64,000 bases of DNA from Sphingomonadales bacterium. Lineage in GTDB: Bacteria; Pseudomonadota; Alphaproteobacteria; Sphingomonadales; Sphingomonadaceae. The position numbers were made by a program, and so were the translations under genes. Below, one piece after another: positions 12,520 to 31,640 of this stretch. The notes below the pieces were generated by a model. The model was not told the origin of the DNA, searched no databases, and saw nothing but the letters and a program-made list of their open reading frames with translations. How positions within the stretch are numbered: the stretch's first letter is position 1; the number at the start of each line of letters is the position of its first letter. The stretch covers positions 1 to 64,000 of the forward strand of contig JAIXOE010000014.1 of the NCBI GenBank assembly GCA_027486895.1, written 5' to 3'.

Positions 12520-12714
12520 TTTACTCTCCCAAATGTTTCTGGCCTGCACCTGACAGAAGCAGATGACGGCGACATGACAATAGAGGTTTACACGGGAGAG
12601 ATTGGGTTGGCGAGGGGGTGTGTGTGGGGGATAGTGATTAGAATTCGAAGAATAAGCATCCGTCATTCAGACGAACGATGTTCTTTTCAATTCCGACTGA
12701 TTCAGCGCCGTATG

Positions 12715-14043
12715 TTAGTAAAATGTGGAAATTTCCTCTTGAACGAATTTCTTGAATTGGCTCATGTGGGGGCGAATCTGTTTCTTGATCTCATTTGCTT
12801 TAAAAATTTTAGCTGCTCTGTACGCATACCTAGGAAAATTTCGGACTCGTCCAAAATGTGTGTAGCGCCGAAAAAGTTCGCGCATGAATATCTCGTCTTT
12901 CGGTATGCCTTTTTTAGACGCAGCAAGGATCTTGGCTCTTATACCTCTTCGCATTTTTGTGTAATACCGAGCTAGGGACGATGATCTAATCAACGTCCTG
13001 CTGCCATCAAAGGTAAAGCCTAGATACTGGAACGGCTGATCGCACTGGACAGCATGACCAGACAATTGAAATGTTGAGATTTCGGTCTTTTTTGAATTGA
13101 TCCGGAGTTTTGACTTACGAATTTCTGATCTGATATATCTCAGAACAGTAGAAACATCGATGCTTGCAGGAATTACAATAGCTATATCGTCGGAATAACG
13201 GCGATATATCCCGCCCTTTTTACCAAGGTATCGCGATAGTTTGCGGTCGAACGCAAACATTGAGATATTTGCATACAAGCCAGATAATGGAGTGCCTTGG
13301 GGAATTCCAAAACATTCCGTGTTTGTTTCGATCAGGCTGCTTCCTGCGCGCCTCACAATGTTTCGGAATTGCGATGGTGTGCAAATTCTCCCGTTAGGTG
13401 TTTTTATGCGTTTTAATCGTGCTTTAAGGACATCAGCATCGACGCATTCAAACTTAGTCATCCGTTCGAAAATTTTGAAATGTGCATCGGGCAGACGCTC
13501 AACGTCCAAGACGCTTTTGAGATTTTGAAATAATATTCCGTGGTCGATATTGTCGAAAAATCCACTAATATCTAAAGCTATGGCCGTGCAATTCCCAATC
13601 GACTTAATTTCATTAAATAAATCTCTGGCTTGGGTTATATTGTCGCCCACTCCAGACCTGTAAGCTAAAACACAGTCGCTTATGCCGCTAAAAAGGATAG
13701 CTTGTTCATAATGCTGTGAAAGACAGGCCGTGTGCCATTGTAATACCGCTGCATCGGTGTGTGATCCAAACTTAATTTCACGAGTCTTGTGTGAAACAAC
13801 CAGTTTGCCGTGCTTATCCTTCTTTGTCCGACGTTCTTTCTTCGCAAATCCCAGCAGCGGCCAAAAGGAATGCGTTACGATTTGTTCATCGGTAATTTCA
13901 AATGCTTCACGTCGATCTTTAGATAACGCGTGATCAAAATGTGTGTAACTTCGCACTTTGGCAACAAAATCGTCGATCCGTGGATCGAATAGATCTTGAT
14001 TCTCAGGTACGTACCCGGGGGCGTTGGATGCCGTGCGTCCCAT
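12715..14043 (-). CDS. Stand-alone reverse transcriptase, probable antiphage (UG/DRT-like)
   Basis: A 442-residue RNA-directed DNA polymerase. Palm motifs are intact: ALDISGFFDNID with the first catalytic aspartate near 158, FGIPQGTPLSG at 245-255, the active site YSDD at 283-286, KKTE at 318-321 and YLGF at 340-343. There is no maturase or HNH domain as in group II introns, and I see no retron-type VTG motif; the C-terminal helical thumb is rich in Lys and Arg. This layout fits the unknown-group RTs, several of which are defence genes. The gene is clearly AT-richer than its neighbours, a sign of transfer. It is alone, with no partner ORF, but is preceded by a structured leader. Subtype cannot be fixed by eye. 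Confidence 0.9.
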   Translation of the reverse strand: MGRTASNAPGYVPENQDLFDPRIDDFVAKVRSYTHFDHALSKDRREAFEITDEQIVTHSFWPLLGFAKKERRTKKDKHGKLVVSHKTREIKFGSHTDAAVLQWHTACLSQHYEQAILFSGISDCVLAYRSGVGDNITQARDLFNEIKSIGNCTAIALDISGFFDNIDHGILFQNLKSVLDVERLPDAHFKIFERMTKFECVDADVLKARLKRIKTPNGRICTPSQFRNIVRRAGSSLIETNTECFGIPQGTPLSGLYANISMFAFDRKLSRYLGKKGGIYRRYSDDIAIVIPASIDVSTVLRYIRSEIRKSKLRINSKKTEISTFQLSGHAVQCDQPFQYLGFTFDGSRTLIRSSSLARYYTKMRRGIRAKILAASKKGIPKDEIFMRELFRRYTHFGRVRNFPRYAYRAAKIFKANEIKKQIRPHMSQFKKFVQEEISTFY

Positions 14044-14300
14044 AATCCCCCGGGTTACTAGCCTAACTTCCGGTCACGCCGGTACGATAGTTACCTGGTG
14101 TGGTACAGTATTAGTACCACGTTCAATTCAGGAGGCGATGCCGCAATGATTAATATCATCATCACATTTCATCTCGCTCTCGGGAAGTTCCCGCTTGCGT
14201 TCCTAAACATAGCTCCCTCAAGCCCAAGTCTTGATGCAATTATTACTATGATATAATTTTCGAATATTTCAAGCGCTGACGAGCAAATTAAGTGGATCGA
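14044..14300 (-). ncRNA. Candidate structured ncRNA or leader of the reverse transcriptase
   Basis: An AT-rich, ORF-free stretch directly upstream of the RT start with several potential hairpins in close order: 14064-14068 with 14089-14093 enclosing CCGG/CCGG (14070-14073, 14079-14082); a perfect GTGGTAC stem 14100-14106 with 14114-14120 around a seven-base loop; ATGAT/ATCAT 14146-14159; and CGGGA/TCCCG 14181-14193. Further up, TTGAAA followed by an AT-rich block near 14240-14275 could be a promoter. ncRNAs in this position are the templates of some DRT systems. The 5' end is a guess. Confidence 0.4.
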
Positions 14301-14434
14301 CGCGTAAATTTACAATGGTTGTTCTACCGTTCTGGTAACCGTTCGTTCCACACCCCAATATTTGCCCCCAAGCCCAAACCCATCTAACACCGCCCCGTCT
14401 GCATGGCATGTGCAACGGCTCGGGGGGGCATCAT

Positions 14435-14980
14435 ATGAACGGGTTTGAATATATCTTTACGTTGTTCGGGCTGCTGCTCGGGCTGGCGCTGGCGGAGGGG
14501 TTGGGCGGGCTTGCCCGTGCGCTGAAGGCGCGGCATCGGGTCCACATCGGCTGGCCGACCGCGTTGCTGGGGCTGTTTGTGTCCTGCGACCTTGTGACAT
14601 TCTGGCTTTATGGCTGGGAATTGCGGGAGCTTATTCCCGTGACATGGCCCGCGCTGTTCGGCGGCTTTGTCGTTACGGCGATTTATTATCTCGCGGCCTC
14701 GCTCGTCTTTCCCGATGGCGATATGGAGGAGTATAACGACCATTTCGACCGCCATTATCGCACGGTCATGGCCGGGGTATTTGTGTGCAATACCGCATTG
14801 TTCGCCACGCTGCTAACGCTCACCGATATTCCCGACCTGTTTAGCGTGCGCTTTATGGTGATCGGATGGTCCGCGTTCCCGACCATGCTGCTGTCGATAT
14901 TCGTGCCCGACCGCCGCGTGGTGATGGGCTGTCTGGTGTGGCTGATCTTCCTCTATCCGCTGTCGGTGGTGTGGACCTGA
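14435..14980 (+). CDS. Polytopic membrane protein, function unknown
   Basis: A 181-residue hydrophobic protein with five or six likely membrane helices, starting FEYIFTLFGLLLGLALAEGL. An acidic loop (PDGDMEEYNDHFDRHYR) sits in the middle. The ATG at 14435 has a run of G seven bases upstream; a GTG or ATG further upstream adds only unlikely residues. No family recognised. Base composition returns to the local norm here, so it marks the right border of the reverse-transcriptase island. Confidence 0.75.
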   Translation: MNGFEYIFTLFGLLLGLALAEGLGGLARALKARHRVHIGWPTALLGLFVSCDLVTFWLYGWELRELIPVTWPALFGGFVVTAIYYLAASLVFPDGDMEEYNDHFDRHYRTVMAGVFVCNTALFATLLTLTDIPDLFSVRFMVIGWSAFPTMLLSIFVPDRRVVMGCLVWLIFLYPLSVVWT

Positions 14981-15017
14981 CTTAGGGCGCGTTTTCCAAC
15001 ACGGCTCTCCCACTTTT

Positions 15018-15119
15018 CGTCATCCTGAACTTGTTTCAGGATAACGCGATAAACGCACATGACTTTCTGAAGCATCCGGCAATGGTGGTTTGTTATCCCG
15101 AAACAAGTTCGGGATGACG
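15018..15119. repeat. Dispersed palindromic repeat, copy 1
   Basis: Two 28-bp arms, 15018-15045 and 15092-15119, are inverted copies differing at two positions (CTGAA...TTCAG in one, CCGAA...TTCGG in the other), so each arm is itself a near-palindrome. Same family as the repeats at 20035, 35633 and 54419. Confidence 0.85.
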
Positions 15120-15171
15120 AGAGGGTGCGGGATTACGAGAACGGGTGTCGGAGTGGCAATCCGGGGCTAGC

Positions 15172-31480: not shown

Positions 31481-31519
31481 CCTTTAGTTGCATCCGCCGG
31501 ATTCGCAGCCTAAACCCTG

Positions 31520-31640
31520 TCCTGTCATCTGGGGAGTAGCCAGCCGTTCGATTTGAACGGGACATGCATCAACATATTTGGCCGAGAGGTCATGGTGCAT
31601 GTGGGGCCGCAAGTGCGGTTCAAGGCGAGACCAATGGCAT
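31520..31640 (+). promoter_or_regulatory. yybP-ykoY manganese riboswitch
   Basis: The leader of the GDT1-family gene contains GGGGAGTAGCC (31531-31541), the hallmark of this riboswitch, followed by GCATCAACAT, a long hairpin arm GACATGCA with TGCATG, and GGCGAGACC near the 3' side, in the family order. It senses Mn2+ and usually turns on exporters, which fits the gene that follows. Confidence 0.85.

What the first reader, a model, noticed from the sequence alone, without database searches (positions are those of the whole stretch)
12715..14043. Lone reverse transcriptase of the defence (UG/DRT) kind on an AT-rich island
All catalytic RT motifs are intact (ALDISGFFDNID, GIPQGTPLSG, YSDD), yet there is no intron, maturase domain, retron signature or partner protein. 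Known UG-type RTs with this form (for example DRT2 and DRT9) are antiphage systems. The active site YSDD and divergent N-terminus leave open that it is a new subtype.
Basis: partly seen in the sequence, partly recalled or inferred. Interest (0 to 1): 0.82.

Follow-up and report, generated by a model that had tools for sequence, protein, structure and literature searches.

The report
DRT2 phage defence, hidden repeat gene
The lone reverse transcriptase belongs to a known bacterial anti-phage family (DRT2) and is probably not alone: beside it lies an RNA that it is predicted to copy round and round into a hidden, endless gene, using a copying signal different from the one described for the studied Klebsiella system.

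Summary
The ORF is real, intact, and a DRT2 reverse transcriptase: 451 bits against the NCBIfam Drt2 cut-off of 390; E 1e-84 to solved KpnDRT2. "No partner" is only half right. A predicted structured RNA of about 224 nt lies upstream (14013-14236, minus) and overlaps the RT start. It holds a 114-nt stretch (14095-14208) which, repeated head to tail, gives an endless hydrophobic frame and sets promoter halves 17 bp apart, as in KpnDRT2's neo gene. The published ACA jump motif is absent; this RNA and its relatives fit a GTT...GT rule. With one fixed rule and no frame filter in choosing units, units are divisible by 3 and stop-free in 5 of 5 loci of its clade, 12 of 16 of the sister clade, 10 of 12 of a third clade and 0 of 24 Klebsiella-type loci. 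The frame is the most hydrophobic of three in 17 of 17. Weak points: in the window the jump sites share only GT, the promoter halves match the E. coli consensus poorly, codon positions show no coding signal, and nothing was tested at the bench. Relatives carry other defence genes at this site. New variant of a known kind.

The parts
12640..14355 (-). Acquired module (RT plus upstream RNA and its promoter), set between phoA and the 14408 gene/uvrA
   Evidence: Alignments to genus relatives stop at 12639 (L176, phoA side) and resume at 14356 (L179); low GC
12715..14043 (-). DRT2 reverse transcriptase, 442 aa, intact
   Evidence: NCBIfam Drt2 451 bits, PADLOC Drt2 432 bits, PDB KpnDRT2 E 1e-84
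14245..14272 (-). Possible promoter of the RNA/RT transcript: TTGAAA-16-CATAGT
   Evidence: Consensus match 9 of 12 only; 4 such sites found in the region against 3.7 expected, so not significant by itself
14013..14236 (-). Predicted non-coding RNA, about 224 nt (ends inferred: 28 nt before the template as in KpnDRT2, to the end of the 3' hairpin)
   Evidence: Fold z -3.75, 0 of 100 shuffles; -3.79, 0 of 200 for 14005-14236; same layout in L186, L032, L074, L039
14217..14235 (-). 5' handle hairpin
   Evidence: 93.3% of cells paired in 5 sequences, covariation 0.850 against 0.446 shuffled, 0 of 500
14206..14208 (-). 5' jump site GTT (first bases of the template)
   Evidence: Register
14095..14208 (-). 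Template unit, 114 nt
   Evidence: Best-scoring unit without frame or stop filter; divisible by 3 and open
14092..14094 (-). 3' jump site GTA; shares only GT with the 5' site
14095..14208 (+). Predicted Neo frame, one repeat of 38 codons, stop-free when repeated: LVWYSISTTFNSGGDAAMINIIITFHLALGKFPLAFLN
   Evidence: GRAVY 0.93, 3 of 300 stop-free shuffles as high
14104..14109 (+). -10-like half of the junction promoter, TACAGT (4 of 6)
   Evidence: 17 bp from the -35 half over the junction
14195..14200 (+). -35-like half of the junction promoter, TTGCGT (3 of 6 to TTGACA); TTGCGG/TTGCGT in all five clade members
14130..14148 (+). Ribosome-site-like AGGAGG, ten bases, ATG in the Neo frame
   Evidence: Sequence; found as the best in-frame start
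14070..14082 (-). Short hairpin behind the template (buttress-like; weak, 4 bp)
   Evidence: at the same place or one base off in L186, L074, L039, unclear in L032
14013..14055 (-). 3' hairpin (tower-like), 9 bp; its loop holds the RT start codon at 14043
   Evidence: 8-12 bp stem in 5 of 5

Best explanation
It is a DRT2 abortive-infection module. One transcript gives a structured RNA and the RT message. The RT binds the RNA, copies the 114-nt template, jumps from the GTT at the template's 5' end back to the GT just behind its 3' end, and so makes head-to-tail cDNA repeats. In double-stranded form the repeats bring a -35 and a -10 half 17 bp apart and create a ribosome site and an endless hydrophobic frame (Neo), whose translation stops growth of the infected cell. 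Shown here by sequence: RT family, conserved RNA and hairpins, repeat arithmetic, open frame and its hydrophobic bias. Inferred from KpnDRT2: RNA binding, jumping, second strand, transcription, translation, growth arrest, phage trigger.
For: Drt2 HMMs and PDB match. Conserved upstream RNA in 5 of 5 clade members with compensatory changes in the handle hairpin. GTT rule without frame filter: units of 114, 129, 102, 102 and 117 nt, all divisible by 3 and open in the same frame; 17 of 17 alphaproteobacterial loci given; by group 5/5, 12/16, 10/12 and 0/24. L186, L188 and L189 were fetched after the register had been noted. No shuffle of the window (0 of 200) reached the score with a unit that is also divisible by 3 and open; 5 of 200 reached the score. 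Predicted frame most hydrophobic of three in 17 of 17, mean z 2.1 against stop-free shuffles.
Against: In the window and L186 the jump sites share only GT. The junction promoter of the window is poor: TTGCGT 3 of 6, TACAGT 4 of 6. An open frame in the window alone is unremarkable (25% of shuffles) and substitutions by codon position are flat, 1020/956/954. The GTT rule misses L003, L143, L146, L188, L069 and L147. RNA fold z-scores of L032 and L039 are modest (-1.64, -1.53). The register and the TTGCGG alternative were found in part of the same sequences. No experiment.
Confidence: 0.82

Rival explanations
1. DRT2 RT and copied RNA are right, but the repeat cDNA itself, not a protein, is the effector; the open frame is a by-product.
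For: No codon-position signal; weak promoter halves in the window. Other class 2 DRTs act through DNA products (passages of PMC12632851).
Against: Units of at least six different lengths are divisible by 3 and open and the frame is biased to hydrophobic residues; DNA-only function would not ask for this.
Confidence: 0.08
2. The Neo mechanism is right for the relatives, but in the window the true jump lies elsewhere or the system has decayed: GT alone is too short and the promoter halves are poor.
For: Two-base match and weak -35/-10; the nearest relative L186 has a broken RT.
Against: RT intact; unit open and in frame; two-base GT matches are also seen in relatives with better promoters, for example L005, L062 and L191.
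Confidence: 0.08
3. Group II intron, retron or DRT9-like RT.
For: Shared RT domain gives sub-threshold matches.
Against: Every other family scores under 85 bits, and those with a curated limit lie far under it (one search listed the best 25 of 90 families); Rfam at gathering level gave only a tRNA and a Mn riboswitch in the window.
Confidence: 0.01

Closest known systems
KpnDRT2 of Klebsiella pneumoniae (PMC11100668, PMC12039810)
   Same: RT family; upstream RNA with 5' handle hairpin, template and 3' hairpins; unit divisible by 3 and stop-free; promoter halves 17 bp apart over the junction; ribosome site; hydrophobic Neo.
   Different: GTT...GT instead of ACA...ACA; 8/9 instead of 6/11 bases between jump sites and promoter halves; 114 instead of 120 nt; RNA about 224 instead of 280 nt; RT start codon inside the 3' hairpin.
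Sister alphaproteobacterial Drt2 loci (L057, L067, L189 and others; fetched here)
   Same: GTT rule, 8/9 spacing, open hydrophobic frame.
   Different: Unit mostly 129 nt; several with consensus TTGACA and TATAAT; GTT matched over 3 bases or more in most.
DRT9 (recalled; passages in PMC12632851)
   Same: Single RT gene with an RNA.
   Different: PADLOC Drt9 65.9 bits against 431.7 for Drt2; DRT9 copies a poly-U tract into homopolymers.

Membership tests
DRT2 / UG2 reverse transcriptase | Score above the curated Drt2 cut-off | tested here: met
   451.3 bits, cut-off 390
DRT2 / UG2 reverse transcriptase | Intact RT catalytic aspartates, no further domain | tested here: met
   D158, D285, D286 invariant; RVT_1 the only Pfam match at E 0.001
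DRT2 system | Structured RNA upstream with handle, template and 3' scaffold | tested here: met
   By prediction and comparison only; expression not tested
DRT2 system | Pseudoknot in the 3' scaffold | tested here: inconclusive
   Looked for by eye only; candidate pairings are 2-4 bases long
DRT2 system | Repeat unit divisible by 3 and stop-free over the junction | tested here: met
   114 nt, frame 0 open
DRT2 system | Sigma-70 promoter rebuilt over the junction with 17-bp spacing | tested here: inconclusive
   Spacing 17, but TTGCGT 3 of 6 and TACAGT 4 of 6
DRT2 system | Rolling-circle cDNA, Neo and phage defence | not testable with these tools
   Needs infected cells
KpnDRT2-type (ACA) template | ACA-1 and ACA-2 bounding an in-frame template | tested here: not met
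   No candidate in the window; ACA rule 0 of 5 in the clade
DRT9 | Best family match | tested here: not met
   65.9 bits against 431.7 for Drt2
Group II intron RT / retron RT | Curated cut-off; intron or retron RNA | tested here: not met
   78.7 of 300 and 58.2 of 235 bits; no such Rfam match at gathering level

The most novel reading that the evidence does not exclude
DRT2 systems come in two template classes: the described ACA class and a GTT class, with its own 8/9 spacing, that holds most of the loci of the three mainly alphaproteobacterial clades examined here. In the window's own clade the RT start codon lies inside the RNA's 3' hairpin, so each transcript can serve either as template RNA or as RT message, and an RT that binds its RNA would shut off its own translation: built-in autoregulation of a dangerous gene-assembling enzyme.
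Probability: 0.3. Interest if true: 0.72.

Novelty: new variant of a known kind. Interest (0 to 1): 0.56.

Why it matters
[quoted passage not shown] One change of rule (GTT for ACA, 8/9 for 6/11) recovers in-frame Neo templates in 27 of the 33 loci of three clades tested. That would mean that the gene-assembly principle is wider than the ACA motif; it shows which part of the jump is free to vary and which junctions to look for in sequencing data.

Tried and rejected
Published ACA rule on the window: no candidate. Jumps at CTAT (window), CCAG (L032) or GAACCGT (L074), and TGTTAA as the -35 half, were considered by eye on printed sequences and dropped because spacing or frame would not fit or because L039 showed GTTAA at both ends. 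The MAFFT alignment of the 3' scaffold (A3) misplaces the arms of the 3' hairpin and was not used for pair counts. The codon-position test gave no support. Searches for more clade members: single-protein scan of genome contigs (39 stretches, 0 relatives), alignment scan of viral contigs (58 stretches, 0 relatives), DNA search of plasmids (no match); whole genomes: one new member (L186) in 396 genomes of the order, none besides the window in 385 of the class. L004, L005 and L006 were first read on the wrong strand and dropped out of the tree with L045 and L096; L004-L006 were later re-read on the right strand.

The GTT-type search with a looser motif (GT) was run on 24 further loci: 14 gave a best hit of score 11 or more, of which 13 were divisible by 3 and open (L069 only with its second hit); 10 gave none or a poor hit (L033, L052, L054, L055, L058, L059, L060, L064, L108, L122).

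Full report
Observation. The ORF 12715-14043 (minus) is real, 442 aa, with every quoted motif, on a stretch with 42.6% GC. It is intact and found once in its genome.

Family. NCBIfam Drt2 451.3 bits against a cut-off of 390; next is the group II intron model with 78.7 against 300. PADLOC Drt2 431.7 bits (a second Drt2 model 392.3), next family 80.8. phmmer against the PDB: KpnDRT2 chains at E 1.1e-84 over residues 29-430. Among 249 genomes of its family only the window's own is over the Drt2 cut-off; four more have Drt2-like full-length hits just under it, 354-382 bits.

Relatives. In a tree of 57 DRT2 proteins (five rows left out as too short) the window falls with L032 (Ketogulonicigenium plasmid), L074 (Paracoccus) and L039 (Brevundimonas), support 100/99, next to a 12-row alphaproteobacterial clade (both together 98/90). 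The Klebsiella-type loci form a group of 24 rows (97/91). A later search added L186, which is nearest to the window (54% over 241 aa) and whose RT frame is broken.

The hidden RNA. Upstream of all five RTs of this clade lies a similar RNA. Its 5' handle hairpin is kept by compensatory changes: 93.3% of cells paired; covariation score 0.850 against 0.446, reached by 0 of 500 shuffles, slid versions at most 0.250 (five sequences only). A 3' hairpin of 8-12 bp is present in 5 of 5. Fold z-scores are -3.75 (window), -2.98 (L186), -1.64 (L032), -2.66 (L074) and -1.53 (L039), so two of five are modest. In the window, L186, L032 and L074 the start codon lies in the loop or at the 3' arm of this hairpin, so RNA and reading frame overlap; L039 was not resolved. 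The window and L186 share the N-terminal protein sequence that follows (read by eye), which favours translation from there. The RNA's ends are inferred; the promoter found upstream is no better than chance.

The template. In KpnDRT2 the RT jumps between two ACA motifs and makes 120-nt repeats that rebuild a promoter and an endless frame, neo (PMC11100668, parts 1-4 of 8 and passages; PMC12039810, parts 1-3 of 10 and passages). The ACA rule finds such units in Klebsiella-type loci fetched here (for example L119, L120, L123 and L125 with 117 nt, L041 and L043 with 120) but nothing in the window. L039 shows GTTAA at both ends, and sister loci show GTT at both ends with TTGACA-17-TATAAT over the junction (L057, L067, L077). 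With the register GTT + 5 nt + (-35 complement) ... (-10 complement) + 9 nt | GT, and no condition on frame or stops, the best-scoring unit is 114 nt in the window, 129 in L186, 102 in L032 and L074, and 117 in L039, all divisible by 3 and open in the same frame. Of 17 sister loci given, one (L143) had no anchor and 16 had a unit divisible by 3 and open, L146 perhaps at a wrong place. One search, with 400 nt or so upstream of each RT, was given the 5 and 12 sister loci (near-duplicates L071, L096 and L102 and the poorly anchored L143 and L146 were left out): 17 of 17 divisible by 3 and open. Shuffles reached the observed score in 5 of 200 (window), 2 of 200 (L003, L188), 1 of 200 (L063) and 0 of 200 (the other 13), and in no case with a unit that was also divisible by 3 and open. 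L186, L188 and L189 were fetched after the register was noted.

Discrimination. One rule each, applied to all groups (score 10 or more, divisible by 3, some frame open): GTT rule 5 of 5 (own clade), 12 of 16 (sister), 10 of 12 (third clade: L004, L005, L006, L062, L069, L072, L080, L083, L088, L145, L147, L191), 0 of 24 (Klebsiella-type). ACA rule: 0 of 5, 0 of 16, 1 of 12, 10 of 24. Misses of the GTT rule: L003, L143, L146, L188, L069, L147. L003 and L188 pass with the looser -35 limit; L069 and L147 have in-frame open units among the two best hits; L143 gives a 120-nt open unit only in the filtered search. In the own clade a second -35 motif (TTGCGG), taken from those sequences, was allowed. 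Six of the third clade's loci are in the tree as one clade (100/100); the other six were assigned by best BLAST hits.

Is the frame coding? An open frame in the window alone is unremarkable (25% of shuffles; the product over five loci is 10^-2.6, treating them as independent). Substitutions by codon position among twelve 129-nt sister units are 1020, 956 and 954 (all pairs): no sign of selection on individual residues. But the predicted frame is the most hydrophobic of the three in 17 of 17 loci and more hydrophobic than stop-free shuffles (mean z 2.1; window 3 of 300 as high; weakest L077 and L087 with 51 of 300). This fits what Wilkinson et al. report for Neo: hydrophobic bias, residue conservation mostly due to promoter and jump elements. 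In the window the frame has AGGAGG ten bases before an in-frame ATG.

Setting. Of ten regions from genus relatives, seven hold both phoA and uvrA flanks. In five of these (L176, L177, L183, L184, L185) only 83-362 bp separate the two alignments; L179 and L182 carry other genes. The window's stretch 12640-14355 found no counterpart. At this place G641 (L179) carries an Mrr-type nuclease and a PDC-M38A-like gene, G632 (L182) an AriA/PtuA-like ATPase, and G640 (L178, phoA side only) two ThsB/TIR proteins (7 proteins given, the 2 of L180 without a clear match). This looks like a defence hotspot.

Mechanism. Most likely as in KpnDRT2, with GT(T) in place of ACA as the realignment sequence. Shown by sequence: family, RNA, register, frame, bias. 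Not shown: transcription, RNA binding, jumping, Neo, defence. That the overlap of RNA and RT start gives autoregulation is a hypothesis.

Literature. The searches, the parts read and the passages gave no mention of a GTT jump motif or of an RNA that overlaps the RT start. Supplements and the journal version of the Tang paper were not seen, and its figure S6 deals with divergent clades, so earlier notice cannot be excluded.

Noticed in passing
window 12523-15171 and L178, L179, L182: The phoA-uvrA interval is a variable spot in the genus: short in five of seven relatives with both flanks, elsewhere with Mrr-type nuclease, ThsB/TIR proteins or an AriA/PtuA-like ATPase.
   Followed up: partly
window 14408-14980 (+): 190-aa predicted protein without Pfam, PADLOC or NCBIfam match, in 8 of 41 genus genomes (window's own included); also beside non-DRT2 cargo in L179, so not a DRT2 partner by this evidence.
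   Followed up: partly
L004, L005, L006, L062, L069, L072, L080, L083, L088, L145, L147, L191: A third DRT2 clade also fits the GTT rule, often with 3' GTC or GTA, units 96-150 nt.
   Followed up: partly
   Followed up: partly
L186: Nearest relative of the window's RT has a broken RT frame but a template that is still open and in frame.
   Followed up: partly
window 31516-31621 (+): Manganese riboswitch (yybP-ykoY), 63.5 bits.
   Followed up: no
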